Shown here: positions 208-50,200 of the stretch, in pieces
Position numbering within the stretch: position 1 is the first letter of the stretch
Layout: the number at the start of each line of letters is the position of its first letter
Source: Undaria pinnatifida
Lineage: Eukaryota; Sar; Phaeophyceae; Laminariales; Alariaceae
Length of the DNA: 64,000 bases
Direction: 5' to 3'
Assembly: GCA_012845835.1 (NCBI GenBank)
Contig: JABAKD010000027.1
Span: 14,788,573-14,852,572, forward strand
Program-made: the position numbers and the translations under genes
Notes under the pieces: model-generated
Seen by the model: the letters and a program-made list of their open reading frames with translations, nothing else
The model's database searches: none
Told to the model about the DNA's origin: nothing

Positions 208-374
208 ACAGAACCCCTCGAGTCAAGACCCTTGCAAGGAAAAAAAAGGTTCACCCTGACCGCAGCATGTGGCCAAATACCCCCGTCGAACACGGGGAAA
301 AAAATAGCGCATTCTTTGGGATAAACTTCCAACTCGGTTTTCTCGAAAAGTAGCGGGGGGGGCACGCACACGGT

Positions 375-472
375 ACTCCTCAGCTCCAGAGTGACTGGAG
401 CCTGTCCTGTGACCACGGAATTGATTATGCGAGTTAATGCGAGAACAACAGCAACAACAGCAACAACAAACT
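375..472 (+). mobile_element. SINE-2 3' fragment with (AAC)n tail
   Basis: Carries the SINE-2 segment around CTCCAGAGTGACTGGAGCC and CTGTGACCACGGA, followed by GCGAGTTAATG and a tail of AAC/AGC triplets. It is the 3' end of the family seen in full at 6545-6810 and 16685-17100. 5'-truncated. Confidence 0.6.
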
Positions 473-2249: not shown

Positions 2250-2512
2250 AAATACAATTACACTCCAGCTGTGATACCGAATATTTCAATGGAATATTTC
2301 GTCGAAACTCATCTTTGCAAGCTGCGTGTGATACTCCTATCGCGCGTATCACTGGGTGCGTGTCCTCATTAAATATATAGGTCGGCGACTCCCCTTGGAA
2401 CTACAGTGTAGCTGGTACCACGGTCAACAGGGTGATGTTAATGAATCTGCGCACGGAAACTGTAAAACCCGTTCTTGAGGGGGACAAAATCTCACGGCTG
2501 TGGAAGGGATGG
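2250..2512 (+). repeat. Dispersed repeat R1 copy
   Basis: Contains the R1 hallmarks in order: CAGCTGTGA, TTTCGTCGAAACTCATC, TTTGCAAGCTG, TAGGTCGGCGACTCCCC, GGTCAACAGGGTGATG and ACGGCTGTGGAAGG. R1 occurs at least nine times in the window on both strands, so it is a mobile or formerly mobile family of unknown class. Confidence 0.65.
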
Positions 2513-3540
2513 TTATATTTGAAAAATTGAAAAAAATACACTTCAGCTGTGAGATCTTTATATATATAAAATACCTGGTAATATATACAACCGGTATCAA
2601 ACACAACCACAGCGACAAAAACAGCGACAAAAACAAACCCTACCGGACCCACGCAGCGAAACACACGCATACTATATCATTTATACCTTAACATAGCACA
2701 CCTGAGCAGGGCGGATGCCGACATCATCGTATGCATCAGTGACAATATTACCAGGTATATCAGTGGACACTCATACGTGAGTGTGGACTCAGACAACGCA
2801 GCTACCGCTAACCCATCAAACCCATCAAAAACGAGAGTGGTGAAGGATAGTAAAAGCGCAAGGAGTACAAAAAAGGAGCGCAACTATCACCACGCTACCC
2901 TACGTGATCGTACAGCTACTGGCGTTAGAGTTCTGGTTCGGACACACCCCCTACCCTCTTCCTCATCGGCTCAGGCTCGCTTTGTGCGGCCAATGCTGTC
3001 ATCTTCAAGAAGCGTTAAACATTTCTTCCCTCCCGAAAGGGTTTATTGGTTAATGGACAACATTACAGTATTAATGGACGACATTACAGATGACACCACC
3101 TGCAGAGATCAAAATGTTGATGAAAAATTATTCCCTATCAAACTCCGCGGAACATCCGGTAGATACAGTCGTGGTCGCTCATTGGTGCGATGCCTCGGCA
3201 GAGGACGACAACCGCACTAAAGTGGGACCGCGCAATATCCCGGAACGGTGCAGTACGCTACTAATAGCACTACATAGGACGAGAAATGTAGTGATCAGCC
3301 ACTATCACCGCACTAAACCGGGGGATCACACTAAAGCGTACCGCACTACTGCTGTAGCATGTGACCACGACTCTGTACACCTGTTATCAGAGTCAGTATT
3401 AACCCTTTCGAAAAAATAAAAAACACAAACGACACACCTTAGCTGGGAGAAAAATAAAATATTGTCGAAACTAGTCTTTGCACGCTGCGTGTGATATTTC
3501 CACCGCGCGTGCCACGTGGTGAGAATATTGTCGTTTTGTT
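2513..3540. other. No assignable gene; one unexplained open frame
   Basis: A 147-codon open frame runs on the + strand at 2777-3220. It is rich in Ser, Thr and Arg, has no recognisable domain, and has no splice or neighbour support, so I do not call it a gene. A repeat G fragment lies near 3460-3510. Otherwise nothing clear. Confidence 0.3.
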
Positions 3541-4330: not shown

Positions 4331-4630
4331 CTACTACTACCTGTACTCGAAGTATAAATATTAGTATTATACCGAAGTAGTACGAAATGATACCGGTAGG
4401 AAGGATCACGGCAAAGTGAAGTTTTCTGGCAGATGACGAACTCTCCATATAACACAAAATGCCCCCCGAGGAATCCAGCCCCTCACCGGAAAATGACAGG
4501 TTTGACTTTCATTCTGGCTCCTGGGGGGCAATTGCAGTGGGGAAAGTGTGGTGTCATGTTCTCTTCTCGTCGTGTACCCCTCAAGTAACCAACCGTGAAA
4601 TAACTATTACGGAGTATTATAACAACAAAA

Positions 4631-5045
4631 ATACTCTCCTCCAGCTGTGAGATCGAAGATTTCGTCGAAACTCATATTTGTAAGCTGTGTGCGGTACGAG
4701 TACTCCGATCGCGCGTACTACTGGATGTGTATCCTCCTTAAGGATTTATTTTTCTTCTTTCTCTTCATACACATCTACTTTCCAGCTTCTGGACAAGCCG
4801 TGGTCACAGGTGTCGTCCCTTCTGCCCCCCGGTTCTTGCCTTCAATTTTTACCGCGCATAGGATTCAGCAATCCCACTGCTCGTTGATTTTTCATCGAGT
4901 GTAGGATATAGGTCGGCGACTCCCCTTAGAACTACAGTGTAGCTGGTACCAGGGTCAACAGGGTTTGCTGATCAATCTGCGCGCGGAAACTATAAAACAC
5001 GTTTTTGAGGGGGGCAAAATCTGACAGCTGTGGAATGCACCAGTT
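4631..5045 (+). repeat. R1 copy interrupted by a SINE-1 insertion
   Basis: R1 sequence is continuous from 4631 to 4745 and resumes at 4903. The break is filled by a SINE-1 3' part. The pentamer AGGAT flanks the insert on both sides (4741-4745 and 4903-4907), as a target-site duplication would. Confidence 0.65.
4746..4902 (-). mobile_element. SINE-1, 5'-truncated, nested in R1
   Basis: Contains CTTCTGGACAAGCCGTGGTC, the CCCCCCGGTTCTTGCC stretch and the CATCGAGTG end of SINE-1, bounded by AGGAT direct repeats. Lacks the tRNA head. This shows SINE-1 moved after R1 had spread. Confidence 0.6.
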
Positions 5046-5778
5046 TATTAGGAATACCCTGTAGCTGCTTAGTATTAGTATTACCGCTGAGGGGAGGGGA
5101 GACAGGTCGCATAAACGATTAGAAGCGTACCGCTTGCGTGGTGCTAGTAGGTGATGGTGGAGGCGGCCGGGAAGGGCGGTGGGGGTCAATTGAAACTCGA
5201 CGACCATATAAACAAACTGGAGCTACTGCAAGGGGGGCTCGAAAGGTGCATCGATTAGACCACCTGTCGGGTAGTGTTTAAACTCTAGCGGATTATTATG
5301 TGTTAAGGTCGTTGACGTTCATCTCACAGTACCATAGAACACGCAAGACAGCAAGCACCCCCCTCGGCGGAACACAAGTATTTACTACAGCAGACCTCAG
5401 ACGTCACAGCCGAGCATACTCCCCAAAACACCAAACAAAACTCCAGCCCAACTAGGCGGTTGCAAGCGCTCAAAGCATGCCTCACCGCCTGGCGCTGTCT
5501 AAGGCCAGAGAGCTGGGGCTATGACATCGTTCGTCGCGCGCATGATCCTGCCCCAGCCTGCATGGGCTTGCGATGTTCAAGACACAGCATTGTGGTTTAT
5601 TTCTCGACGACTTCAGAGGACAAACGCCGAGCGACGCGTCAATAAAAATATATCCAAGACAACTTCCCAAAGCCTCCATTTCCGTTGTGCGCGCCCTCCT
5701 GATTGGGGAGAAAACTAGTCCAGAAAAACATCCAGTGGGTGTGCTATCTAGCGTGATATAGATACTATAAAATTAAAA
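5046..5778. other. Unique stretch, nothing assignable
   Basis: No repeat family or exon with splice signals recognised. Short open frames on both strands (for example 5460-5645 and 5482-5679) overlap each other and have no recognisable domain. Confidence 0.3.
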
Positions 5779-6090
5779 ATACGATCCAGCTGTGAGATCG
5801 AAGATTTCGTCGAAACTCGCCTTTGCAAGCTGTGCGTGATACTCCGATCGCGCGTATTACTGGGGGTGTGTCTCCTCATTAAGGATATAGGTCGGCGACT
5901 CCCCTCGGAACTACAGTGTAGCTTGTACCAGGGCCAACAGGGTGATGTTCATCAGTCTGTGCGCGGAAACTACAAAACCCGTTTTTGAGGGGGACAAGAT
6001 CTGACAGCTGTGGAAGGAAATGCATCAGTTTATCAAGTGTATCCCGTAAGTCGTATAACCGGTGAGGGGAGGGCGGGAGGGCGGAGATCT
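5779..6090 (+). repeat. R1 copy
   Basis: Near-full R1 with all hallmark blocks and the downstream extension (AAATGCATCAGTTTATCAAG, ACCGGTGAGGGGAGGGCGG) also seen at 27229 and 47815. The extension shows that R1 is longer than the CAGCTGT-bounded core. Confidence 0.65.
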
Positions 6091-6544: not shown

Positions 6545-6810
6545 TGGCAATCGGAATAGTTGGTTTCTCCAGGCGTGAGTAGTGAGACGTATGCACCGGC
6601 CTGGACCTGGCACATCGTAGACTGACTCCCGATTTCACTTTTATATGTTTCTGGTGGAGGCATGAATTGCGTCAGCTGTGATATATGCGTGTACCACCTT
6701 GGGTTGTGTGTGTTTTCCCTGGGGTATTCCTCAGCTCCAGAGTGACTGGAGCCTGTCCTGTGACCACGGACTTGATTATGCGAGTTAATGTGAGAACAAC
6801 AACAATGGCG
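6545..6810 (+). mobile_element. SINE-2 copy
   Basis: Blocks in order: GTGAGTAGTGAGACGTATGC, a CCTGGCACATCG segment, TATATGTTTCTGGTGGAGGC, GATATATGCGTGTACCACC, CTCCAGAGTGACTGGAGCC, CTGTGACCACGGACTTGA, and an AAC-rich tail. The layout and simple-repeat tail fit a SINE. Its 5' part has a weak box A-like TGGCAAxCGG and no clear box B. Confidence 0.55.
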
Positions 6811-7185: not shown

Positions 7186-7250
7186 TCTCACATTAACTCG
7201 CATAGTCAAGTCCTTGGTCACAGGACAGGCTCCAGTCACTCTGGAGCTGA
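7186..7250 (-). mobile_element. SINE-2 tail fragment
   Basis: GTTGTTGTTCTCACATTAAC followed by the reverse of the CTGTGACCAAGG and CTCCAGAGTGACTGGAGCC blocks. Only the 3' end of the family is present. Confidence 0.5.
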
Positions 7251-7339
7251 AAAGTATCGGCATCCAGCGCACCCCATCTAGGTTGCGCCGATTGTTCAAG
7301 TACAAGCTCAGTGGTCAACAGGTACGAGACAGAGAACAG

Positions 7340-8194: not shown

Positions 8195-8345
8195 TGTTGT
8201 TGTTGTTCTCACATTTAACTCGCATAATCAAGTCCGTGGTCACAGGACAGGCTCCGGTCACTCTGGAGCTGAGGAATACCCAGGGAAAAACACAAACACC
8301 CAAAGTGGCACCTGTACACCATATATCACACCTAACACAACAGGC
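8195..8345 (-). mobile_element. SINE-2 3' part
   Basis: Starts (read reversed) with the triplet tail and carries the GTCCGTGGTCACAGGACAGG and CTCCGGTCACTCTGGAGCTG blocks, ending in the region that reads CCATATATCACA. The 178-codon frame crossing it on the minus strand is a by-product of the repeat. Confidence 0.5.
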
Positions 8346-16684: not shown

Positions 16685-17100
16685 ATTGTTGTTGTTGCTG
16701 TTGTTGTTCTCGTATTAACTCGCATAAGCAGGTCCGTGGTCACAGGACAGCAGTGTTGTTGTCTCACATTAACTCGCATAATCAAGTCCGTGGTCACAGG
16801 ACAGGCTCTAGTCACTCTGGAGCTGAGGAATACCCCAGGGAGAAAACACGAAAAAACCGGAGGTGGTACACGCATATATCACAGCTGACGCAATTCATGC
16901 CTCCGCCAGAAACATACAAAAAGTGAAATCGGGGGTCAGCCTAAGATGTGCCAGGTCCATACTGGTGCATGCGTCTCACTACTCGCGCCTGGAAAAACCG
17001 ACTACAGTATACCGCTTGCCACCCAGTAAAGACTACCACGTATATATTACACGTAGCACCTATCACTACGCATACGACGACAGACGCAAGTCGAATAGAA
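16685..17100 (-). mobile_element. SINE-2, near full length
   Basis: Read reversed, it runs from about 17100 (ACTTGCGTCTG region) through the GGTGGCAAGCGG block, the TATATGTTTCTGGCGGAGGC block, CTCCAGAGTGACTxGAGCC and CTGTGACCACGGACTTG to an AAC-rich tail at 16685. A second tail unit (16755-16775) suggests one SINE end landed in another. Sisters lie at 30357-30700 and 34855-35260. Confidence 0.55.
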
Positions 17101-17887: not shown

Positions 17888-18350
17888 GGGGAGGTGATAT
17901 AAGTACCCTCTGGGGTTCGTGAAGGCCACGTACCCTCGGCCGGGGGTACGTCTATATACGCACGAACCCCCGTACGAACCCCCCTCCAGTAGCACTGCTG
18001 TTGTATTGGACGGCGTTACGAGGGCGGATTCACTGATGATTGTGGGGAGACAGACATGGAGGATAACACCCATGTGAAAAAATGGTCGACCAAACCCCTT
18101 CTAGTTTTCGTGCAAGCATCCATCATGTTCGCGCTGTACTCCCTTTGATAACCGAAGCAAGGGCTTTGCGCTGCACATGGGTGATTTCCTCCATGTCTGT
18201 CTCCCCACAATCACCAGTGAATCCGCCCTCGTAACGCCGCCCAATACAACAGCAGTACTACTGGAGGGGGGTTCGTGCGTATATAGACGTACCCCCGGCC
18301 GAGGGTGCGTGGCCTCCACAAACCCCCGAGGGTACTTATATCACCTCCCC
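17888..18350. mobile_element. 463-bp foldback element
   Basis: Two arms of about 185 bp in inverted orientation (17888-18075 and 18174-18350) flank a 98-bp loop. The outer ends are GGGGAGGTGATATAAGTACC and its inverse. The arms contain ACCCTCGGCCGGGGGTACGT and GACAGACATGGAGGA. No transposase frame is present, so it would be non-autonomous. A one-arm relative lies at 28285-28385. Confidence 0.7.
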
Positions 18351-19014: not shown

Positions 19015-19662
19015 CCGCCGTGCGCTTCACTCATGTAAGGCCGTGATGATGTTATCGGTAGAGAAAGGCCGAGGGAATGAGGTTGGGGGGGTGGGGGGGG
19101 GTGTCAATTGCTTGACCCGCTCAGCTTCGTGAGAAGGAGCGTGGGCGCACCGTAGATATGCCGATGTGGGGTTCCGCAGAGCAATACATGAGAGATATTT
19201 GTATTTCATGTGCCTGACCACTCGCGCCTGCTACGGTATACGTGTACGTCTCGTGCACGTCTGGAGGTTGTTGTCTGCACCCCGGAGCCTGAGGAGCATG
19301 CACCAAAATATGGCGTATACATCAGAAGGCGTAAAATGTCCAGGAGGTGTATACTGGTATACGTCACCCCACACTTGCGACAAGGGTTACCTGTAGCCCA
19401 AGAATATCGCACACTTGCTTTGTTGCCGCCGTTATCGCCAGGAAATGATTGCTGCTTCGCTGATGATGTCGCTTTTGACACAGGAGATATTCCCCCTCCC
19501 CCTCCCCTCGGGGGGCTGTGCCTTGCGCCTGTACTAAAATCAACTATTAATACCAATTACAGCATGCTGCAGTAAAAATGTACCGGTATTCATTTTTGTT
19601 CATCAATTTGCCATCCGACATTGTGCAGCGAGTCAGTGTCATCAAAGACGATATGAGTTTCG
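19015..19662. other. Left flank of the recombinase element
   Basis: No gene supported. The last bases before 19663 read ATGAGTTTCGAC, which matches the interior of reverse-oriented R1 and continues on the other side of the element at 26334. A + strand frame here contains CCFADDVAF, which recalls a reverse-transcriptase box but stands alone. Confidence 0.35.
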
Positions 19663-19934
19663 ACAAAGGAGAGGGTTATGACCTTCGGGAACCGAAAGCG
19701 GCGTAACCCGTGGTTTGTTTGGACGCGAAAGAATTTAGGGTTGTTGTTCCATGCTCTGGTAACGGTCCACCACACGGTAGTTGGTGGCCATCACTCTTCG
19801 GTTGACTCGCGCAGCTAGGTAAGCCCGCACGTCGGAGGGCAAGGGACGGTACCGTGTAGGCTGTGCGACCAGAGAAGAGGCAAGTGTTAGTAGCCGGCCA
19901 GCGACCCAGCATTAGGTCGGCTCTCGTGATATTT
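19663..19934 (+). repeat. Split direct repeat A1 (left end)
   Basis: 272 bp, starting ACAAAGGAGAGGG and ending CTCTCGTGATATTT. It appears identical to A2 at 25678-25949. The satellite array starts directly after it. Confidence 0.85.
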
Positions 19935-19935
19935 A

Positions 19936-22900
19936 GTCTCCGTTGAGACGGGCGATGATTTATGTCGCCAATTATTTGTACCCCCCCTTCATGCTCGAAT
20001 TGAGAAACCAAAGACAGGATAACTACACCTCGTCTCCGTCGAGACAGGCGTTTATTTATTGCTGTATGCGACCGCCGGAATCACGGCTTCGCATGTTTCG
20101 CGTACAATCGATGGGTCATGGTTTCAGGTGGGGTTGAGGCAGAATACGTACCCAGTCTCCGTTGTGACGGGCGTTGACGTATGTCGCCAATCATTTGTAC
20201 CCCCTTTCATGCTCGAATTGAGGAACCAAAGACAGGATACTTACACCTCGTCTCCTTCGAGGCAGGCGTTTGGTTGTCGCTGCATGCGACCGCTGGTATC
20301 GCGGCTTCGCATGTTTCGCGTACAATCGATGGGTCATGGTTTCAGGTGGGGTTGAGGCAGAATACGTACCCAGTCTCCGTTGAGACGGGCGATGATTTAT
20401 GTCTCCAATTATTTGTACCCCCCCTTCATGCTCGAATTGAGAAACCGAAGACAGGATACCTATACCTCGTCTCCGTCGAGGCAGGCATTTGGTTATTGCT
20501 GTATGCGACCGCCGGTCTCTCGGCTTCGCAGGTTTCGCGTACAATCGATGGGTCATGGTTTCAGGTGGGGTTGAGACATAATACGTACCTAGTCTACGTT
20601 GAGAGGGGCGCTGATTTACCTAGTTTACGTTGAGAGGGGCGCTGATTTACGTCGCCAATTATTTGTACCCGCCTTCATGCTCGAATTGAGGAACCAAAGA
20701 CAGAATACCTACACCTCGTCTCCGTCGAGACAGGCGTTTAGTTACTGCTGTATGCGACCGCCGGTATCACGGCTTCGCATGTTTCGCGTACAATCGATGG
20801 GTCATGGTTTCAGGTGGGGTTGAGGCAGAATACGTACCTAGTCTACGTTGAGAGGGGCGCTGATTTACGTCGCCAATTATTTGTACCCGCCTTCATGCTC
20901 GAATTGAGAAACCAAAGACAGAATACCTACACCTCGTCTCCGTCGAGACAGGCGTTTAGTTACTGGTGTATGCGACCGCCGGTATCACGGCTTCGCATGT
21001 TTCGCGTACAATCGATGGGTCATGGTTTCAGGTGGGGTTGAGGCAGAATACGTACCCAGTCTCCGTTGAGACGGGCGATGATGTATGTCGCCAATTATTT
21101 GTACCCCCCCCCTTCATGCTCGAATTGAGAAACCAAAGACAGGATAACTACACCTCGTCTCCGTCGAGACAGGCGTTTATTTATTGCTGTATGCGACCGC
21201 CGGTATCACGGCTTCGCATGTTTCGCGTACAATCGATGGGTCATGGTTTCAGGTGGGGTTGAGGCAGAATACGTACCCAGTCTCCGTTGAGACGGGCGAT
21301 GATTTATGTCGCCAATTATTTGTACCCCCCCTTCATGCTCGAATTGAGAAACCAAAGACAGGATAACTACACCTCGTCTCCGTCGAGACAGGCGTTTATT
21401 TATTGCTGTATGCGACCGCCGGAATCACGGCTTCGCATGTTTCGCGTACAATCGATGGGTCATGGTTTCAGGTGGGGTTGAGGCAGAATACGTACCCAGT
21501 CTCCGTTGTGACGGGCGTTGACGTATGTCGCCAATCATTTGTACCCCCTTTCATGCTCGAATTGAGGAACCAAAGACAGGATACTTACACCTCGTCTCCT
21601 TCGAGGCAGGCGTTTGGTTGTCGCTGCATGCGACCGCTGGTATCGCGGCTTCGCATGTTTCGCGTACAATCGATGGGTCATGGTTTCAGGTGGGGTTGAG
21701 GCAGAATACGTACCCAGTCTCCGTTGAGACGGGCGATGATTTATGTCTCCAATTATTTGTACCCCCCCTTCATGCTCGAATTGAGAAACCGAAGACAGGA
21801 TACCTATACCTCGTCTCCGTCGAGGCAGGCATTTGGTTATTGCTGTATGCGACCGCCGGTCTCTCGGCTTCGCAGGTTTCGCGTACAATCGATGGGTCAT
21901 GGTTTCAGGTGGGGTTGAGACATAATACGTACCTAGTCTACGTTGAGAGGGGCGCTGATTTACGTCGCCAATTATTTGTACCCGCCTTCATGCTCGAATT
22001 GAGAAACCAAAGACAGAATACCTACACCTCGTCTCCGTCGAGACAGGCGTTTATTTATTGCTGTATGCGACCGCCGGTATCACGGCTTCGCATGTTTCGC
22101 GTACAATCGATGGGTCATGGTTTCAGGTGGGGTGGAGTCAGAATACGTACCCAGTCTCCGTTGAGACGGGCGATGATTTATGTCGCCAATTATTTATACC
22201 CCCCCTTCATGCTCGATTTGAGAAACCAAAGACAGAATACCTACACCTCGTCTCCGTCGAGACAGGCGTTTATTTATTGCTGTATGCGACCGCCGGTATC
22301 ACGGCTTCGCATGTTTCGCGTACAATCGATGGGTCATGGTTTCAGGTGGGGTTGAGGCAGAATACGTACACAGTCTCCGTTGAGACGGGCAATGATTTAT
22401 GTCGCCAATTATTTGTACCCGCCTTCATGCTCGAATTGAGAAACCAAAGACAGAATACCTACACCTCGTCTCCGTCGAGACAGGCGTTTATTTATTGCTG
22501 TATGCGACCGCCGGTATCACGGCTTCGCATGTTTCGCGTACAATCGATGGGTCATGGTTTCAGGTGGGGTTGAGGCAGAATACGTACCCAGTCTCCGTTG
22601 CGACGGGCGTTGACGTATGTCGCCCATCATTTGTACCCCCTTTCATGCTCGAATTGAGAAACCAAAGACAGGATACTTACACCTCTTCTCCGTCGAGGCA
22701 GGCGTTTGGTTGTCGCTGCATGCGACCGCTGGTATCACGGCTTCGCCTGTTTCGCGTACAATCGATGGGTCATGGTTTCAGGTGGGGTTGAGGCAGAATA
22801 CGTACCCAGTCTCCGTTGAGACGGGCGATGATTTATGTCTCCAATTATTTGTACCCCCCCTTCATGCTCGAATTGAGAAACCAAAGACAGGATAACTACA

Positions 22901-23310
22901 CCTCGTCTCCGTCGAGACAGGCGTTTATTTATTGCTGTATGCGACCGCCGGTATCACGGCTTCGCATGTTTCGCGTACAATCGATGGGTCATGGTCTCAG
23001 GTGGGCTCGATTTAACGAAGAAGTCAGATACAGAATATCAGGCTTTGGTGCGGGGTAAATGCATACCCAGTCTCCGTTGAGACGGGCGTTGGACCTATAT
23101 AGGTTGTTAGTATGTACCCCATTCATGCTCGAATTGAGAAACCAAAGACAGAATACCCACACCTAGTCTCCGTCGAGACAGGCGTCGGGTTCATTCTGCA
23201 TGGGAAGTCGAGAGAGGCGATCGACACGCCGTTGCGTGCGACCGCAGGTATCACGGCTTCACATGTTTCGCGTACAATCGATGGGTCATGGTTTTTAGGT
23301 GGGCTCGAAT
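19936..23310 (+). repeat. Satellite array, about 15 monomers of 218 bp
   Basis: Monomer starts (GTCTCCGTTGAGACGGGCG or close) fall at 19936, 20155, 20373, 20592, 20841, 21059, 21280, 21499, 21717, 21936, 22154, 22373, 22591, 22809 and 23070. A 31-bp local duplication lies at 20592-20640. Each monomer carries a second, diverged half beginning GTCTCCGTCGAGACAGGCG, so it is an old dimer. Monomers 1-3 repeat as 7-9 with an offset of 1344 bp, a higher-order duplication. The last monomer is longer and diverged. Long frames across the array reflect absence of stops, not a protein. Confidence 0.85.
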
Positions 23311-23879
23311 GATGCAGCCGTCGCTGTGTAGTACGAGTACCTGGTACAGCAGAAGATGTGATCTGACAAGTCGCGAATCATCGTACGTGTGTATATATTT
23401 ATACCACAGGTATGGTACCGAATATATCACAATACGCAGACCATGGTAAGAATGGTCATGAATCTGATGCGAAATTACGTGTCAATCGCTGAAATATTGG
23501 TCATCGTCATCATGTATTCATCGCGTATGCACGACAACTCAAGTGCTAGATGAACCGGATGTAAGTTCCGACAGCGTCTATTAAATGGGTGAACCGGAGG
23601 CGAAAAGAAAAAGAAGAAAAGAAAAAATATATACATACGAATATATATAAATTCGGACGGGGTCGAACGGGGGTTGGAAGGACACTTGATGCGTACCAGG
23701 TAGAATGTATCCCTGGTACCAGGTTCTCCGCATTCGATGGTTCAAAGTATATCTGGGATACGAGCAGGTTACGAACCGGTATATATCATATATATATAAT
23801 GTGTATATATAATTGTTATATACAGGTGGTATATAATGCATATATGTATTAAATGTTATATACGGGTGGTATGATAGTT
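23311..23879 (+). other. AT-rich spacer between satellite and recombinase region
   Basis: TATATA-rich DNA with two TACC(A/T)GGTA motifs (23338, 23694). No gene seen. Confidence 0.4.
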
Positions 23880-25430
23880 GTCCGCGGGCGGCACGTCAAG
23901 TTGGGCAAGAAGCGGCCCGTCGGCGGCGAAGCGGGCGAAGACGCAGACGGCGAGGCACTGTTTCGGTTGGGCCAAAAAGGAGGGTGGCCGTTTCCGGCAA
24001 TGTGCATTCCTTCACGACTCCGCGAAGAAGTACCGCAGCGGCAGCGCTGCAGCATCCGATGGATCTCGCGCTCCTAGCGCGGGAGCCGGGGGGTCACAAG
24101 CCGGCACGCAAGCCAGGGGACAAGCCATGGCACAGGGTGGTTCGACAGCTCGCACTGCCGCTGTACCTAGCAGCCCGTAGGGGTGCGGGCTCCGCTCACC
24201 CGCGGGGCCAACTCTGGGAGGACATCGAGCTGCAGCTACCAGGAGGGAGGCGCCGCTGGTACACCCGGGGTCGGAACCTGTATCCGGATCAGGAGCAGGA
24301 CCTAGGGCAAGCGGGTGCGGGTCTATGTACCGGGATTTTAGCGTCCAGTACATCCGGCAGTCAGTTGCGGGCTCGTCTGAACGCACTTATGGCTCAGGCT
24401 TCCGGTCTTGGTTAAAATTTCGTGAGTGGATAGGTAGCGAGTCATATCTTGAACCAGGGGAGTCAGAAAGCGCCTGATATGGGCCCTGGTCGATTTCGCG
24501 GCGTGGTGTGCCGCATCTGAAGGGAACCAAGCGGGGACCATTTCTGGTAAACTTGCCGCCGTACAGTATTTTCACCGGGTGGGTTTGGGTCTTGAGCTTC
24601 CTACAAAGTCGTCTTTGATGAAGAGCGCGTTGAAAGGGATTTCACGTTCACACACGCTCGCGGGAACAGCCCGCCCCGTACGCCTCCCGGTGTCATGGGA
24701 GATGCTGTGGGCAGGGAAAAGCCTAGCCCCGTCATGGGGCAGTGGTGGTGGCGTTCTGTGGCTTTGTTTGGGTATGGCATATTTTTTTGTTTTCATTATG
24801 CGGTCGGACGAGGTGTTTGCGGGCGCAGCAGGCGTCGTGCACGCCGCACACTGCCTTACACGTAGTGATGTTGCATTCTTTGCTGGAGAGAGCCAGTTGG
24901 ATATATTGCGGTGGCAAGGGGCCGATCGCTTGGAGGTACGCTTTCGGGGACACAAGGGTGATCAGGGGCAAGCAGGTAGCGTCATCGTGCGCACACGTTC
25001 CGCGGTGCGGGGTCCGCGTTCGGGTTTGGGCACCGGCGGCGGCGCCGTTGCCCTCATGGTGGATCTGTTGTCGCGGTATCCAGCGCTTCCCGAACGCGCC
25101 CCCCTCGCCTCGTATCGTAGTGACAACGGAGTGAGAGTATGGGGATATGGCCAAGCGATGCGAGCGTTGAGAGAGATTGTGGCGCAGTCGGGACGCAACC
25201 CCGATGAGTTTGCACTACACTCTCTCCGTATAGGAGGTGCGTCCGTGCTCGCGGCGGGAGCGACGTGCCCGAGCGAGTAACCCAGCGCGAAGGACGTTGG
25301 AAGTCTGATGCTTACAAGGTATACACTCGCAATAACGTAGAGGACGCAGGACGAGTCTCTCGCAAACTAGCGGTAGCAGGAAAGGGCCAGAGACAGCCAG
25401 GCCAAGGCACTATATGGGGGAAACCGTAGC
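23880..25430 (+). pseudogene. Broken tyrosine recombinase gene region of the element
   Basis: Fossil gene of the YR element. An upstream part encodes a possible zinc-finger-like segment (CFGWAKKEGGRFRQC). A segment with SSERTYGSGFRSWLKF resembles the N-terminal core-binding region of eukaryotic transposon tyrosine recombinases. The C-terminal part has HSLRIGG, the HxxR catalytic box, and GRWKSDAYKVYTR, where the last Tyr-containing block fits the nucleophile region. Base composition is more GC-rich than the flanking spacer. The region is interrupted about two or three times, so no full-length protein is expected from this copy. Confidence 0.7.
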
Positions 25431-25451
25431 AGTCTTCGGCGACCTCGTGTT

Positions 25452-25682
25452 TGGAGGAGTTTCCACGGTATCGTACCGTGGGTGGGACTCAGTCGTCTTA
25501 GACTGCATGGGTTTCGGTTGGGACCTGGCTAGTGGTTAACGGAGGGAGAGACGGGATTTAGAGTAGAGACCACCAGTGGAATACCGTCAAGGTTGGTTGC
25601 GGTAGATTGGTCTCTCGGGGTGCTCTCCCTCCCAAGTCACAGACACAATAATAACCAAGCAATTCGAAAGATATCAAACAAA
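25452..25682 (+). repeat. Split direct repeat B1
   Basis: 231 bp, TGGAGGAGTTTCCACGG to GATATCAAACAAA, appears identical to B2 at 26103-26333. It contains TCCACGGTATCGTACCGTGG, a palindrome that might be a recombinase or protein-binding site. Overlaps A2 by five bases. Confidence 0.85.
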
Positions 25683-25949
25683 GGAGAGGGTTATGACCTT
25701 CGGGAACCGAAAGCGGCGTAACCCGTGGTTTGTTTGGACGCGAAAGAATTTAGGGTTGTTGTTCCATGCTCTGGTAACGGTCCACCACACGGTAGTTGGT
25801 GGCCATCACTCTTCGGTTGACTCGCGCAGCTAGGTAAGCCCGCACGTCGGAGGGCAAGGGACGGTACCGTGTAGGCTGTGCGACCAGAGAAGAGGCAAGT
25901 GTTAGTAGCCGGCCAGCGACCCAGCATTAGGTCGGCTCTCGTGATATTT
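25678..25949 (+). repeat. Split direct repeat A2
   Basis: 272-bp copy of A1, abutting B1. The B1/A2 junction (ATATCAAACAAAGGAG) is the sequence expected if a circular intermediate joins the two element ends. Confidence 0.85.
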
Positions 25950-26102
25950 CTCCCACCCACCCACCCTTTTTCTTTCGAAGGTGAGGAGAAGGGGGAAATG
26001 TCGCACTGTGTATTTTATGACAATTGTGTTTGTCTTCATTTCTGTGCACTAGGAATTAACTGATATTGGTATATACAACAGTTGGTTCACTTAGGAGTCG
26101 GA

Positions 26103-26333
26103 TGGAGGAGTTTCCACGGTATCGTACCGTGGGTGGGACTCAGTCGTCTTAGACTGCATGGGTTTCGGTTGGGACCTGGCTAGTGGTTAACGGAGGGAGA
26201 GACGGGATTTAGAGTAGAGACCACCAGTGGAATACCGTCAAGGTTGGTTGCGGTAGATTGGTCTCTCGGGGTGCTCTCCCTCCCAAGTCACAGACACAAT
26301 AATAACCAAGCAATTCGAAAGATATCAAACAAA
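26103..26333 (+). repeat. Split direct repeat B2 (right end)
   Basis: 231-bp copy of B1 that forms the right end of the element. A 153-bp spacer (25950-26102) separates it from A2. Immediately beyond it R1 sequence resumes (AAATATTCGAT, CACAGCTGGAGTG). Confidence 0.85.
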
Positions 26334-26400
26334 ATATTCGATTTCACAGCTGGAGTGTAATTTAATTTTGATAATAACATTACATCAGGTATGCGCATTA
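26334..26400 (-). repeat. R1 remainder split by the YR element
   Basis: TTCGATTTCACAGCTGGAGTG is the end of a reverse-oriented R1. Its other half would be the few bases left of 19663. Confidence 0.55.
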
Positions 26401-27195: not shown

Positions 27196-27228
27196 TTCAA
27201 TTTTTATAATATTATAAAAATAAAAAAA

Positions 27229-27690
27229 CACCAGCTGTGAGATCGGAGATTTTGTCGAAACTCATCTTTGCAAGCTGTATGTGATACTCCGATCGCGCGT
27301 ATTACGGCCTGCGGGTCCTCATTGAGGATATAGGTCGACGACTCCCCTTGGAACTACAGCGTAGCTATCAGGGTCAACAGGGTGATGTTAGTTAGTCTGT
27401 GCGCGGAAACTATAAAACACGTTCTTGAGGGGGACAAAATCTGACAGCTGTGGAAGGAAATGCATCAGTTTATCAAGTGTATCCTGTAAGTCGCAAAACC
27501 GGTGAGGGGAGGGCGGAGTTTTGAAGGGCGTGGGGGCATGGGTTTGAACAAGAGGGAGCGGGGGGGTGGGGGGGACGGGCGGGGCAACTCAATCTGTCGT
27601 GGAAACTGTAAATCCTTTAAGGGGATAAATCTGACGGTTTTGGAAGGAATGCATCAGTTTATGATGTGTATCCTGTATATTGGCTTACCC
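27229..27690 (+). repeat. R1 copy with downstream extension
   Basis: Full core (27229-27460), then the ATGCATCAGTTTATCAAG, GAGGGGAGGGCGGAG and GGGxGGACGGGCGGGGC extension and a diverged second copy of the GCGGAAACTATAAAxCC segment (27590-27685). The same order is present at 47815-48245. Confidence 0.6.
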
Positions 27691-27736
27691 GCACGTATGT
27701 TACCACACCACGTCGTATATTATCAAAATAAAAACA

Positions 27737-28000
27737 CACTACAGCTGTGAGATCGAATAAATTTGTCGAAACTCATCTTTGCAAGCTGTGTGTGATACTC
27801 CGATCGCACGTATAACGGGTTGTGTGTCCTCATTAAGGATATAGGTCGGCCACTCCCCTTGCAACTACAGTGTAGCTATCAGGGTCAACAAGGTGTTGTT
27901 AGTCAGTCTGTGCGCGGAAACTATAAAACCCGTTTCTGAGGGGGACCAAATCTGACAGCTGTGGAAGTAAATGCATCAGTTTAGCAAGTGAATCCTATAC
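27737..28000 (+). repeat. R1 copy
   Basis: Second forward R1 within 600 bp, CAGCTGTGAGATCGAATAAA through GACAGCTGTGGAAG. Lacks the long extension. Confidence 0.6.
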
Positions 28001-30356
28001 CAGATATAAAGGGAACAAGAAAAACTAACGGCCCGACGACGTTCAGAATGATTTCTGTGGTATCACAAGCATATATCTACATGGCAAGTTGCTGATCTGT
28101 GTGCGTGTGTTGTACGCGGCTTTTATAACAATAGTCACGCGCGCACCTCTCCTCTGCAGTGTTCGCCGTCTCTCGTGCTCTACTTCCGTGAGTATGCGGG
28201 TATTTACTAACTCGCGGCGGTACAGTGGAGCATAAGAGACGGCAGTGTATACTGCTGTGGTGCCAAAGGTATATCTATCTTGGGTATACTGGAGGGGGGT
28301 TCGTGCATATATAGACGTATCCTCGGCCGAGGGTATGTGGTCTTGGCGAACCCGCGAGGGTACATATATCAATCACCTCCCGTGTTGCCCGTATATTTGA
28401 TATTACGTTCATCCTAGAAACACGCCATAATATTTGATGGAAATCCGTTCAAAAGGGTTTCGGGGGTCGGGAGGGCAGATGGGAAATGAAACGAGAACGC
28501 GAATTTTAATTCTCCGCCGGCGCTTTCAGCGCCCCCCCCTCACCAGCCGGAGGGTTGGGGGCGACGGTTGCCCTCGCGTCTCTCGGTCGCCTTGCTTACT
28601 CGCTTCCCAGTATACTGATAGTCCAGTATACTGTCGCAGTCAGTATGATCTCTACTGACTTAAAGCTGCCGCGTACTATCAATATCGCCTGTGGTATTAG
28701 ATACATGTTTTTTTCCGTTGTGAAACCAGGTCGGTGACACGAAGGCCGTGGCAAACAGAGGGGTCGGTTTGCCCCCAAAAGTAGCTTGTGCTTACGCGAA
28801 TTACCGCAGAAAGCAGAGTGTGAGCTGCGTACAGGTGATTACTCAAGTCCAAATGTGGCAATACAGCAGCCAGCGGAGCTACCCACAGGGATAAGATGCA
28901 GGGATTCCATGTAGAAATATGTGGCTTGAGTGAAAGGGGACAGGTTTTGTTACGTAATTACGCCGCCCCAGACCATTTTATGGCCGCTAGTGTAACCTCG
29001 CCGTAGTGCCGTACTGCGGTAACCCAACATTCTTGATAATGATACGATGAATGCGCAACATACACAAATAGTAGTAAATAGTATCGGGAGTGAGTACAAC
29101 TACTATTGTAAGCTACGATACAAGGCATTATTGATGCGCAGGAAAGGCCAAGAACAGGTAGACCAAGTCACGTGGCGAACCGAAAACAGGTATTCATAGT
29201 CTTGGAAATAGGCGACGAAGACACGGCGGTCAGCAGCGACCGAAAAACAAGTGTCAAGTTTATTTTTTTCGTGCATGCAGGCTCGGCACCAAAACCTTCA
29301 TTTGCAGCCCCGATCCAACCTCTTACTACGCGCGTGCAAGGCGATCGGGGCGACGTTCAGGATTAAGGTCACAGGGTTAGGGTTCGGTTGGGCAGTGCCT
29401 GCCAAGCGAAACAGAAACAAAAATGATAACCAACCGCAGGGTAGCTGATCACTTCTTGAAGAAATGGTTTGCTGCCTGCGGCCGCGTTTGATTTGCATCG
29501 GCTACCCTCGATTTTGGTCGCCGTGGGGTCAGGGTGCTTGGTGTGCCCTGTCGACGGCTGCTTGTATACCCGGGGTCAGTTTGGAGGGCATACCCAGGTT
29601 CAGGTTGGAGGGATCAGGTCCAGGTGGGATTACGTCGCCATGCGAAAAATTGTGTCCGTACGTGTGTTGGGCAATGAAACATGCCCAAGTTTCAGTAGTT
29701 GACTAATACTGGGTTCCTCGATTGTATGGTAAACTGTACCCCCCTCCTAGTGTTTTTTCGACCAATCCCACAGCAGCCCTCTGCGCCGTGTGCGTGTCAT
29801 GCGCGCGGGCTCCTCCCGCGTCCAGGGTTTATCGCGCGCTCTGGCGGGTTCTTGAACTCAAGACTCGTGTGATGTATTGCTACGGCCAGTAGTCGAGGGG
29901 GGGCACTGCACGACCTCTGGTTGGTTGAAAATAGTTCGAGAACGGTTGAAAGCCAATCAAGAGTGGACATATTCAGAATCGCCTGTCGGACATAACAAGT
30001 GCGATATGTTTTCGGTAAATCGGAGTGCTCGTGGTGTGTGTTCGTTTTCGGGTACCCTGTTTTTTTTTCCGTTTTGTATGCTTCAAAATGAACACCTGTA
30101 CGTGTTTTTTGCCGCTACCCTGTGCTTTTTATCACAATGGTATGATATATCGCACGTCGGCTTATCGGCTTGTATTGTTACCATCGCACTTACAACATTT
30201 AGTGTTCGTTCCTTTTTCGAAACGCCTCTGTAAGCACTATTTTCCTACTGTGGAAAGGTGATCGGACGTAAAGGCAGGCCGGGTGTGCAACTAAAATATT
30301 GCACACCCCACCCTGCTCCCGCCTGGCGCCCTGATCCCGCACCTATCTGATCCCTG
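28001..30356. other. Mostly unique DNA without a supported gene
   Basis: A foldback arm is at 28285-28385. A GC-rich block at 28500-28600 and a 118-codon + frame (29877-30233) with a hydrophobic C-terminal half were examined. The latter could encode one or two membrane segments but has no family match or splice support. Confidence 0.3.
28285..28385 (-). mobile_element. Single arm of the foldback family
   Basis: CTGGAGGGGGGTTCGTGCAT, CCTCGGCCGAGGGTATG and GGGTACATATATCAATCACC match the right arm of the element at 17888-18350. Confidence 0.55.
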
Positions 30357-30700
30357 TTCTCACATTAGGTCGCATAGTCAAGTCCGTGGTCACAGGACAA
30401 GCTCCAGTCACTCTGGAGCTGAGGAAAACACCAGGGAAAGAAACACACAACCAAAGGTGATACACGCATATATCACAGCGGACGCAATTCATGCCTCCGC
30501 CAGAAAAACATATAAAAAGTGAAATCGGGAGTCAGCTTGAGATGTGCCAGGTCCATACTGGTGCGTACGTCTCCCTACTCGCGCCTGGGAATACCGACTT
30601 TACCGCTTGCCACCCAGTAGAGACTACTACGTACCAGGTATATATTACATGTAGTACCTATCACTACGCATACGCACGTCAGACGCAAGTCAAATAGAAA
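30357..30700 (-). mobile_element. SINE-2 copy
   Basis: All SINE-2 blocks in reverse order. Relative to the copies at 17030 and 35180 it has an extra TACCAGG within ...TACG/TATATATTAC, one of the clearest cases of the 7-bp insertion discussed under findings. Confidence 0.6.
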
Positions 30701-33945: not shown

Positions 33946-34172
33946 TTGCCGTCAGATTTTGTCCCCCTCAAAGACGTGTTTTATAGTTTCCACGCACAGA
34001 TTGATTAAACACCCTGTTGACCCTGGTACAAGCTACACCAACTGTAGTTCTAAGGGGAGTCGCGGACCTATATCCTTTATGAGGACACACACCCAGTAAT
34101 ACGCGCGATCGGAGTATCACACACAGCTTGCAAAGATGAGTTTCGACGAAATCTTCCATCTCGCAGCTGGAA
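33946..34172 (-). repeat. R1 copy, reverse
   Basis: CCGTCAGATTTTGTCCCCCTC, CCCTGTTGACCCTGGTAC and CTTGCAAAGATGAGTTTCG in reverse R1 order. Confidence 0.6.
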
Positions 34173-34376
34173 TGTGTTGTTGCTGCCCCAAAATTCCACC
34201 TTGCAAGTGATCTAAATACCGGTCGGAGCTCTTTTTATAATATGTCGTATAGCTCCTCCTGCCGCAGCGCTTTGAGCTTTGAACACACCCTCTACCCAGC
34301 GTTCCGGCGGGCTGCTCTTTGGTGAGCCGATTGTGTTTTCGCCAGTTAATTTCGTCAATTGACCCCCTAAAGCAAA

Positions 34377-34895: not shown

Positions 34896-35260
34896 TTGTT
34901 GTTGTTGCTGTTGTTGTTGTCACATTAACTCACATAATAAGCCCGTGGTCACAGGACAGGCTCCAGTCACTCTGGAGCTGGGGAATACCCCATAGAAAAA
35001 AGTACAAACCAAGGGTGGTACAAGCATGAATATATCAAAGCTGACGCTATTTCATGCCTCCGCCAGAAACATATAAAAGTGAGATCGGGATTCAGCGTAC
35101 GATGTGCCAGGTCCATACTGGTTCATACGTCTCACTACTCGCACTGAAAAACCTACTATATCGCTTGCCACCTAGGAAAGACTACCACGTATATATTACA
35201 CTTATCTATCCTATGTACAAAGTTTGTGTTCGCCAAGGATGTTTGGATGATGTATATATG
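34855..35260 (-). mobile_element. SINE-2 copy with long triplet tail
   Basis: Tail of about 70 bp of TTG/CTG triplets (read reversed CAA/CAG), then the SINE-2 blocks through to the TATATATTACAC region. The poly-Cys and poly-Val frames are tail translations. Confidence 0.55.
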
Positions 35261-47206: not shown

Positions 47207-50200
47207 TTGATGTTGGTATTGATGTTGGTGTTGATGTTGGTGTTGATGTTGGTGTTGTCTTTTGTTCGGGGCGAGGAATAACAGCCCGCCGGTAGGGGTG
47301 CATGAGATTCTAAGAAGTCCCTGAGGTCCTCACATGAGGAGCTCAATATCTCACCCGATACTACATGACTTCGAAGGTATTCGTTCGCACAACCCGACCA
47401 AGCTTCCATGCCTTAGTCCTAAAACAATAGGTACTCGTGAAATGACTTGATCTATGACTAACCGGTAGTTCCTCACTTGAGGTAAGCTGAATCGAACAGG
47501 TACGTTATTTGTTAATCCAACAACTGCAGCCACTACCGTGGGATGGCTCCTTTTCTTCTTGTTCAGACCTTTCATCTGGGACCAAATTCATCGGAGACCA
47601 AATAATAATAGGATACGAAGTATGTTATGAGAATAAAAACACACTCCAGCGGCTGTGAGATCGAAGATTTCGTCGAAGCTCATATTTTGCAAGCTGTGTG
47701 TGATACGCTTTCGATCGCGCGTATTACTGGGTGTGTGTCCTCATTAAGGATATATAAGTCGGCGACTCCCCTTGGAACTACAGCGTTTATTTGTTCCAGG
47801 ATATATTATCAAAAATGAAAATACACTCCAGCTGTGAGATCGAAATTTTCGTCGAAACTCATCTTTGCAAGCTGTGTGTGATACTCCGATCGCGCGTATT
47901 ACGAGTTGTGTGTCCTCATTAAGGATATAGGTCGGCGACTCCCCTTACAACTACAGTGTAGCTATCAGGGTCAACAGGGTGATGTTAGTCAGTCTGTGCG
48001 CGGAAACTATAAAACCCGTTTCTGAGGGGGACAAAATCTGACAGCTGTGGAGGGAAATGTATCCGTTTATCAAGTGAATCCTGTAAGTCGAATAACCGGT
48101 GAGAGGGGGCGGAGTTTTGAAGGACGTGGGGGCCTGGTTTTGATCAAAAGCGAGCGGGGTTGGAGGGGGGGGGGGGGCGGACGGGCGGGCAATTTGTGCG
48201 TGTAAGCTATAAATCCTTTCAAGGGGATAGATCTGACGGTTTTGGGGGAAAAAAAAAATTAAAAAAAAAAAAATATCACATATCGCTGCTCTTGTAACGG
48301 ATCACTCCAGCATACACCATGTCACCGATAGCGCGAGACCCGCTTAGCCCCGTTATTAGCACTACCGTGCCATCGTTTTGGAAACGCCTTTTTTTTTCTT
48401 TCTCTTCTTTTTTGGGCGGGGGCACTGTTCAATACTTGGAACTAGTATGGGATACTTTTTTGCAATGGGAAAAGGGTCAAGATTTGCAAACCTAGCCCTA
48501 GACAAATTCCAAGTAATTTGTCCCGCAGGAAAGTGATTGCAGTTCTCAAGGAGGTATAGATAAATAACCCTTGCAAAAATATTTTATGGTAATTCGAATC
48601 CGTTTCGATGTCCCAAAAAAATGTGGGTGGAGTTGCTATGCAGTTGACAGTCCGGAGGCGTGCTTCTTTAGGGGTAGCAAATTCTGGTTGAAATGCTTTC
48701 AGAATGACGGGACTCCTCAGCCCTTTTGGGGCTCTTGTACATGGACAAAAAATACGGCGATTGCGACATTTTCAAGCGTGTACTAGTGAGGGAGCAGTAT
48801 TAATAGTACGACTAGGATTATGCTGCACATCTTTCTGTAAGACGAGCCCTTGCATTGCTGTACGTCGGGCATTAATGTTTGTCATCCCCCAATCTGCCAC
48901 AGACGGCGAAACGGGCAGGGGATAGGATAAGCAAACAGTTTTTTTATGTCATGTGTGGATGAAGCGTAACGAGCGCCCAAATGTTGGAGGTGTCTCTATT
49001 AGGAGTAGGAACGGTTCTCTGTCTCGAAAGGGATGCGTGGGCAACGGTCAAATGACTAAGGCAAGCAAAAAATGAGTACGCCCCCCCCCCCCCAATCAGC
49101 AGTGCACGATGCTGTAATCATCACTTTACATCGTCGATTTTGCCCTCTCAAGTTTTGTGAGTTTGATAAATTTAGGGTCGATACTCATATTTGCTAGCTG
49201 CGTGATACACCGGCCGCTCGTTTGTACAGATGTACTATCGTCTGAATACTGTGGGTGTTGTCAGGGTGAACATCAAGAGCAATTGTTACAATGTTTGTTT
49301 TTTTTTCTCACATTTTTACTCTCCAGCTTCTGGACAATGCGTGGTCACAGGTGTCGTTCCCGTTTGTACAGATGTACTATCGTTTGAATACTGTGGGTGT
49401 TGTTAGGGTGAACATCAAGAGCAATTTTTACAATATTTTTTTTCTTTTTTCTCACATTTTTACTCTCCAGCTTCTGGACAATGCGTGGTCACAGGTGTCG
49501 TTCCTTCTCCCCCCCGGTTCTTGCCTTCAATTTTTGTCGCGCATAGGGTTCAGCATTCCCCCTACTCGTCGATTTTCCATCGAGTGTTGCTAACTCACGC
49601 ACTCGCGTTTTCCGCAAGTCAATTTGTGCACAAGAAAAAAAGTCCCCACGAATCGAGTATGCGCTCGGCGGGGCTCGAACTCACGAAGCTGACCTGTACC
49701 AGGCTCGAGGATAACCTGATACGCCACCGGGGCGACCGGCTCACACAACGTTAGCTATTAATAGTACCAGTACGATAAGTTGTTATACTTGATTGTAGTA
49801 TAGGACGCGTGCTACGATAGCGGTGTGCACACCACTTTTTTTCTCAATACTACACCTCACTTTGGGAGCTTATGTTATAACACTTAGTTTGGGTAAGCTA
49901 TTGGTTGACCTTTTGCAAGTGGTCAAACAGACTAATACCCCACTAATACCTTAACAACTAGTGGTACTCCCGAAATATGCCAGTTGCCGGCCGGTATGGC
50001 GGACAAGAACAAATTGGTGCTGTATCCTCTGTATTAAGTACTAAAATAACAAAATAATAACAGGGCAGTACGACAATCCCGCCGTACGTACGGTAGTAAA
50101 GGTATCATCCTCTGTATGTAAGTTTTGCAAAACAAAAATGATAAAACGGCAGCAGTAGTACGTACGGTAGTAAAGGACAGAGGAGTGCAGCAGTGGGGAC

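What the first reader, a model, noticed from the sequence alone, without database searches (positions are those of the whole stretch)
19663..26333. Young YR element with split direct repeats but no visible reverse transcriptase
The A1-B1/A2-B2 layout with a 5-bp ACAAA overlap is the PAT/Ngaro arrangement of tyrosine-recombinase retrotransposons. Those carry RT and RNase H; here the interior is a satellite plus a recombinase region and I see no RT. All repeats look identical, so the copy moved recently even though its own recombinase gene is broken. It was probably mobilised in trans, or it represents an RT-less YR lineage that shares the repeat design.
Basis: partly seen in the sequence, partly recalled or inferred. 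Interest (0 to 1): 0.75.

Follow-up and report, generated by a model that had tools for sequence, protein, structure and literature searches.

The report
Retrotransposon-like element missing its reverse transcriptase
A 6.7-kb mobile element with the end repeats of tyrosine-recombinase retrotransposons carries a broken recombinase gene and a satellite array but has no room for a reverse transcriptase, so it was most likely copied recently with enzymes from a complete relative.

Summary
A1/A2 are identical over 272/272 bases and B1/B2 over 231/231. B1 and A2 overlap by ACAAA, which also bounds both outer ends. Inside lie 15 satellite units of about 218 bp, then a tyrosine recombinase (YR) gene in three pieces in three frames. 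Curated libraries missed the YR. A profile of nine bacterial/phage YRs finds it: 51.1 bits against 2.2 for the best of 200 shuffles, HxxR and Tyr aligned. No reverse transcriptase or RNase H appeared in six frames, and only about 1.0 kb is unaccounted for. Best reading: a non-autonomous relative of split-direct-repeat (Ngaro/PAT) retrotransposons, copied with RT supplied in trans and integrated from a circle at ACAAA. Not excluded: a DNA-only YR lineage, or two ACAAA-bounded YR elements in tandem. The decisive test, other copies in the host genome, could not be run: the genome search did not complete 18 times. New variant of a known kind, moderate interest.

The parts
19663..19934 (+). A1, left terminal split direct repeat (272 bp), begins ACAAA
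   Evidence: identical to A2 over 272/272
19935..23323 (+). Satellite array: 15 units, mostly 218-219 bp (exceptions 249, 221 and 297), starting directly at the end of A1; first 685 bp exactly repeated at 21279
23878..24324 (+). GC-rich stretch before the YR; one frame is open from 23878 to a stop at 24178-24180 and holds a possible degenerate Cys/His (gag-like) motif at 23956-24018; low confidence
   Evidence: motif recalled, no library match
24325..24474 (+). YR gene, N-terminal piece
   Evidence: its segment scores 8.7 bits (E 0.07) with the YR profile, second of 1,486 window segments
24453..25277 (+). YR gene, main piece (rest of the N-terminal domain, part of the catalytic domain with HSLR), in a different frame
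   Evidence: 39.3 bits, E 3.2e-11, first of 1,486 window segments
25262..25426 (+). YR gene, C-terminal piece with GRW and the putative catalytic Tyr, in a third frame
   Evidence: aligned to Cre and eight plasmid YRs
25452..25682 (+). B1, internal copy of the right terminal repeat (231 bp)
   Evidence: identical to B2 over 231/231
25678..25682 (+). ACAAA, overlap of B1 and A2 (predicted circle junction / crossover)
25678..25949 (+). A2, internal copy of the left terminal repeat
   Evidence: identical to A1
25950..26102 (+). 153-bp spacer between A2 and B2
   Evidence: no repeat of 30 bp or more joins it to the rest of the element; no similarity to A, B or the satellite consensus beyond shuffles
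26103..26333 (+). B2, right terminal repeat, ends ACAAA
   Evidence: identical to B1

Best explanation
A non-autonomous derivative of the split-direct-repeat YR retrotransposons (Ngaro/PAT layout). It has the 3' part (YR gene, B1, A2, B2) and the 5' end A1. Between A1 and the YR gene it carries a 218-bp satellite array and no gag-RT-RNase H of usable length. Proposed cycle: RNA of the element is reverse transcribed by enzymes of an RT-bearing relative; the internal B1-A2 stretch serves as template to restore both ends, so A1 = A2 and B1 = B2 after each round; a DNA circle with a B|ACAAA|A junction forms; a YR, supplied in trans or by this YR before it broke, recombines the circle with a genomic ACAAA, leaving ACAAA at both outer ends and no other target duplication. 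SHOWN: the repeats, the overlap, the ACAAA ends, YR homology, the frame breaks, absence of a detectable RT/RH and of space for one. INFERRED: reverse transcription in trans, the circle, the order of events.
For: Exact A1/A2 and B1/B2 identity and the shared ACAAA. The layout A1-[interior]-B1A2-B2 with internal repeats downstream of YR is the one described for Ngaro (PMC8547959 section 11; PMC4157794 passages); lack of TSDs is typical of DIRS-order elements (PMC8969392 passages). YR identity: a profile of 9 YRs scores the interrupted YR at 51.1 bits against 2.2 for the best of 200 shuffles, and two of its three pieces rank 1 and 2 of 1,486 window segments. Of the 20 plasmid records listed (32 matched), 19 carry an annotated integrase/recombinase under the match, E 0.3 to 8. 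No RT/RH in six frames, and about 1.0 kb left over against the >600 aa used as RT/RH size criterion for VIPER/TATE (PMC6681497 passages). Both repeat pairs are perfect while the YR gene is broken: RT-templated renewal explains this; DNA-only movement would not reset A1 against A2. A non-autonomous split-repeat relative is in print (SIRE of VIPER).
Against: No other copy and no RT-bearing partner has been seen; the host genome could not be searched. Eight of the nine profile members were chosen because they matched the query weakly, most of them in its N-terminal half; the C-terminal half alone gives only 12.7 bits (best shuffle 2.9), and the N-terminal piece alone is not significant in the window scan (E 0.07). 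Lambda Int and XerD did not match pairwise. Pfam, NCBIfam, PHROGs and PDB searches did not recognise the YR, so Pfam's silence on RT is weaker than it looks and the space argument carries the weight. The frame breaks could postdate insertion or be assembly errors; the repeats could be kept alike by gene conversion. No inverted YR-binding arms around ACAAA beyond shuffles. The structure model was useless (mean pLDDT 38.5).
Confidence: 0.62

Rival explanations
1. Tandem pair: two separate YR elements with the same ends, A1-satellite-YR-B1 (19663-25682) and a short A2-spacer-B2 (25678-26333), each bounded by ACAAA, integrated side by side. It would then be a Crypton-like DNA element plus a short non-autonomous one, not a retrotransposon.
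For: ACAAA stands at all three boundaries; Cryptons have short terminal direct repeats, 5-6 bp in CryptonS of oomycetes and a diatom (PMC3212892 passages); only a YR was found inside. Two adjacent Ngaro1 insertions are reported in one Cafeteria virophage element, so neighbouring insertions occur.
Against: A and B identical over 503 bases between two independent elements of different content needs a very recent common origin, yet no repeat of 30 bp or more joins the 153-bp spacer to the long unit, so the short unit is not a simple deletion product of this long copy. Cryptons are described as lacking long direct repeats. The geometry is the published Ngaro arrangement, and solo AB copies are thought to derive from such elements.
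Confidence: 0.15
2. An RT-less YR lineage that uses the split-repeat design and moves only as DNA circles, with YR from intact copies.
For: Only a YR was found and there is no RT space; ACAAA ends fit YR circle integration.
Against: Without reverse transcription the internal B1A2 copy has no evident use, and A1/A2 and B1/B2 would drift apart as the lineage ages, yet they are identical although the YR gene has decayed.
Confidence: 0.13
3. Autonomous element ruined in place: a full retrotransposon lost gag-RT-RH by deletion and gained satellite units after insertion.
For: The satellite shows recent internal duplication (685 bp exact); frame breaks in YR.
Against: 0 differences in 503 repeat bases leaves little time for a multi-kb loss after insertion and for satellite units, the first 13 being 77-100% alike, to diverge and build up.
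Confidence: 0.07

Closest known systems
Ngaro retrotransposons (DIRS order)
   Same: A1-[interior]-B1A2-B2 direct repeats, internal repeats downstream of YR, YR with HxxR and Tyr, about 6-7 kb, no target duplication beyond the crossover
   Different: no RT, no RNase H, no confirmed gag; a 3.4-kb satellite fills the 5' half; YR broken
PAT-like / TOC elements of algae
   Same: split direct repeats; the TOC1 element of Chlamydomonas is recalled (from no call) as RT-less with internal tandem repeats
   Different: no RT, RNase H or methyltransferase found here; sequence relation to TOC elements not tested
SIRE, the short form of VIPER
   Same: derivative of a split-repeat YR retroelement, possibly mobilised by an autonomous partner (PMC6681497 and PMC12278014 passages)
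   Different: SIRE is only the A2-B2 region; this element has all four repeats and a YR gene
Crypton DNA transposons
   Same: YR without RT; 4-6 bp terminal direct repeats (PMC3212892 passages)
   Different: Cryptons are described as lacking long direct repeats; here two pairs of 272 and 231 bp

Membership tests
Ngaro | split direct repeats A1-[ORFs]-B1A2-B2 | tested here: met
Ngaro | internal repeats downstream of the YR gene | tested here: met
   YR ends at about 25426, B1 starts at 25452
Ngaro | tyrosine recombinase | tested here: met
   profile 51.1 bits, HSLR and Tyr aligned; gene broken
Ngaro | reverse transcriptase and RNase H | tested here: not met
   six-frame Pfam scans negative, about 1.0 kb left over
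Ngaro | Gag-like ORF | tested here: inconclusive
   only a possible degenerate Cys/His motif at 23956-24018; no library match
PAT-like | split direct repeats | tested here: met
PAT-like | RT, RNase H and methyltransferase domains | tested here: not met
Crypton | YR without reverse transcriptase | tested here: met
Crypton | short (4-6 bp) terminal direct repeats | tested here: met
   ACAAA at both ends
Crypton | absence of long direct repeats | tested here: not met
   272- and 231-bp repeat pairs
Non-autonomous split-repeat YR retroelement | shares A and B repeats with an RT-bearing partner in the same genome | not testable with these tools
   The genome search unanswered in 18 of 18 tries (first, last)
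TOC1-type | sequence similarity to TOC elements | not tested
   no TOC sequence was fetched; structure recalled only

The most novel reading that the evidence does not exclude
A YR element lineage that keeps the full split-direct-repeat design without using reverse transcription: either a DNA-circle element with split repeats, or a frozen tandem of a long and a short ACAAA-bounded YR element, the kind of intermediate from which the Ngaro/PAT repeat layout could have arisen.
Probability: 0.2. Interest if true: 0.7.

Novelty: new variant of a known kind. Interest (0 to 1): 0.42.

Why it matters
How split direct repeats arose and how YR retrotransposons replicate is, as far as I know, mostly modelled from sequence. 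An apparently recent copy with all four repeats and a YR gene but no RT separates the parts needed in cis (ends, B1A2 junction) from those that can be supplied in trans, and makes the circle and RT-renewal model testable. If it proved DNA-only, it would be a link between Cryptons and Ngaro/PAT elements.

Tried and rejected
Relatives: the search for related loci with the main YR piece in viral contigs (8 pattern stretches) and genome contigs (96), and with the C-terminal piece in viral contigs (16), confirmed none. Exact patterns of the satellite and the A start and degenerate patterns of YR motifs gave 0 hits in viral contigs. Library scans of the YR (Pfam; NCBIfam 57; PHROGs 29, 58; PDB 14, 56) gave no YR match; PHROGs gave weak hits only to two families of unknown function. 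Pairwise, lambda Int and XerD were no better than shuffles; Cre was better (2 of 300 shuffles as high; phmmer E 2.9e-4 for one target). Structure prediction from the single sequence was too poor to use (mean pLDDT 38.5), so no fold search was made. Inverted YR-binding arms around ACAAA: no better than shuffles in the junction or the target. Homology between the two halves of the satellite unit: not above shuffles. Host identity: Pfam on 10 ORFs picked by eye from the list gave nothing at E up to 0.1; a brown alga is my guess from the look of the sequence and is untested. A Suv3_C_1 match above its cut-off (E 1.3e-9) lies in the satellite read backwards and was set aside as a repeat artefact; other Pfam matches were below their cut-offs and to unrelated families. 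Rfam at gathering scores: nothing.
Full report
OBSERVATION. The reported anatomy is exact. A1 19663-19934 and A2 25678-25949 are identical over 272 of 272 bases; B1 25452-25682 and B2 26103-26333 over 231 of 231. B1 and A2 overlap by five bases, ACAAA, and the same five bases begin A1 and end B2, with unrelated flanks outside (TTTCG on the left, ATATTC on the right). No 16-base word of the element occurs in the window outside 19600-26400 on either strand, so A and B are not ordinary dispersed repeats of this neighbourhood; the rest of the genome was not searched.

INTERIOR. Directly after A1 stands a satellite array with 15 copies of a 20-base anchor. Units are 218 or 219 bp except for 249, 221 and 297. 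The first 13 units are 77-100% alike; the last two align worse. The first 685 bp are repeated exactly 1,344 bp further on. After an AT-rich stretch comes a GC-rich part (bin 24001-26000: 58.4%, against 41.5-54.2% in the other 2-kb bins) that holds the recombinase.

RECOMBINASE. The YR reading frame is in three pieces, about 24325-24474, 24453-25277 and 25262-25426, each in its own frame, so it has at least two frame breaks. Pfam, NCBIfam, PHROGs and PDB sequence searches did not recognise it. Three other results support it. (i) phmmer without filters against three YRs and five unrelated proteins gave Cre at E 2.9e-4, aligned at HSxR, GxW and Tyr, and no other target below 0.09; lambda Int and XerD did not match. 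In a Smith-Waterman test 2 of 300 shuffles reached the Cre score. (ii) tblastn against plasmids found 32 records at E up to 10; of the 20 listed, 19 carry an annotated integrase/recombinase under the match and one has no annotated feature; no single E-value is significant (0.3 to 8). One phage record matched at E 0.1, unannotated. (iii) A profile from Cre and eight YRs (8 of those 32 records, fetched) scored the interrupted protein at 51.1 bits; the best of 200 shuffles had 2.2. Caveat: the eight were chosen through weak matches, most in the N-terminal half, which gives most of the score (37.5 bits). A profile of the C-terminal half alone gave 12.7 bits against 2.9 for the best shuffle. Against all 1,486 stop-to-stop segments of 30 aa or more in the window, the full profile ranked the main piece first (E 3.2e-11) and the N-terminal piece second (E 0.07). 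The HSxR and Tyr columns are aligned, and the Lys region (GHKGD) falls on the profile's Lys at a very low score (1.5 bits). The box I Arg is uncertain: by eye I would take MRSDE, but the MAFFT alignment puts the Arg of LTRSD there.

REVERSE TRANSCRIPTASE. All six frames of 19663-26333, stops read as X, gave no RT, RNase H or methyltransferase family in Pfam at E up to 1 (four frames) or 10 (the other two minus frames, and three plus frames of 23300-25450). Because Pfam also missed the YR, this alone is weak. The stronger point is room: outside repeats, satellite and YR only about 23324-24324 (1.0 kb) and a 153-bp spacer remain, while RT/RH proteins above 600 aa were the criterion for potentially coding VIPER and TATE copies (PMC6681497, passages). 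Ngaro elements of Cafeteria, about 6 kb, carry RT, RNase H and YR named by Pfam families (PMC8547959 section 11).

MECHANISM. For DIRS1-like elements a model is in print in which the internal junction matches the joined ends and a circle integrates by YR recombination without target duplication (PMC3266345, passages); DIRS elements lack TSDs (PMC8969392, passages). The B1|ACAAA|A2 stretch here equals what joining B2 to A1 at ACAAA would give, which is the predicted circle junction. That both repeat pairs are perfect while the YR is broken is best explained if the last round used reverse transcription supplied in trans. A DNA-only cycle would not reset A1 to A2. This step is inference, and the breaks may be younger than the insertion.

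RIVALS. The locus can also be read as two ACAAA-bounded units in a row, A1...B1 and A2-spacer-B2. No repeat of 30 bp or more joins the spacer to the rest of the element. Only genome copies can separate this from the retroelement reading. A purely DNA-moving YR lineage also stays possible.

COMPARISON. Ngaro and PAT membership proper fails on RT/RH; Crypton membership fails on the long direct repeats. 'Works like' a split-repeat YR retroelement dependent on a partner is the fair statement. Precedents: SIRE of VIPER, solo AB repeats of Ngaro, and TOC1 of Chlamydomonas, called retrotransposon-like in PMC7722844 (passages); its internal tandem repeats and lack of RT are recalled, from no call. In Ectocarpus 15 Ngaro and 5 PAT-like families are reported and the word Crypton does not occur in the main text (PMC12477816, section 5 read and passages), but the host of this window is not identified. 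Eight paper searches listed no paper whose title or shown start of abstract describes an RT-less, YR-bearing split-repeat element with a satellite. Supplements and papers outside the library were not seen, so this is no proof of absence. Other papers seen in passages only: PMC4157794, PMC8226300, PMC3783388, PMC9210276, PMC3212892, PMC12278014.

Noticed in passing
window 19935-20619 and 21279-21963: 685 bp of the satellite are repeated without a single difference at 1,344 bp distance (about 6 units), a sign of very recent unequal exchange or template switching inside the element.
   Followed up: partly
window 23956-24018 (+): Open frame reads HCFGWAKKEGGRFRQCAFLHD, which looks like a CCCH zinc finger lacking one Cys; possibly a gag remnant next to the YR. 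Motif recalled, no library match.
   Followed up: partly
window about 20786-20860 (-): Pfam Suv3_C_1 scores above its cut-off (38.2 bits against 22.5) in a backward frame of the satellite; probably an artefact of tandem copies.
   Followed up: no
window 2289-2566, 4615-4697, 5760-6076, 27205-28027, 34041-34181, 47802-48113: A dispersed repeat family in direct and inverted copies, 61-95% alike, with CAGCTGTGAGATCGAAGATTTCGTCGAAACTC; one pair 511 bp apart at 27205/27716.
   Followed up: no
window 371-453, 6708-6795, 7186-7270, 8208-8292, 16762-16846, 30358-30442, 34917-35001: Another dispersed repeat (ACTCGCATAATCAAGTCCGTGGTCACAGGACAGG) in both orientations, up to 97% alike.
   Followed up: no
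window 17888-18350: Close inverted repeats, arms of 106 nt at 94% and 84 nt at 95%, 97 and 295 nt apart: a possible MITE or foldback element.
   Followed up: no
window 55286-55471: Perfect tandem pair of a 92-bp unit.
   Followed up: no
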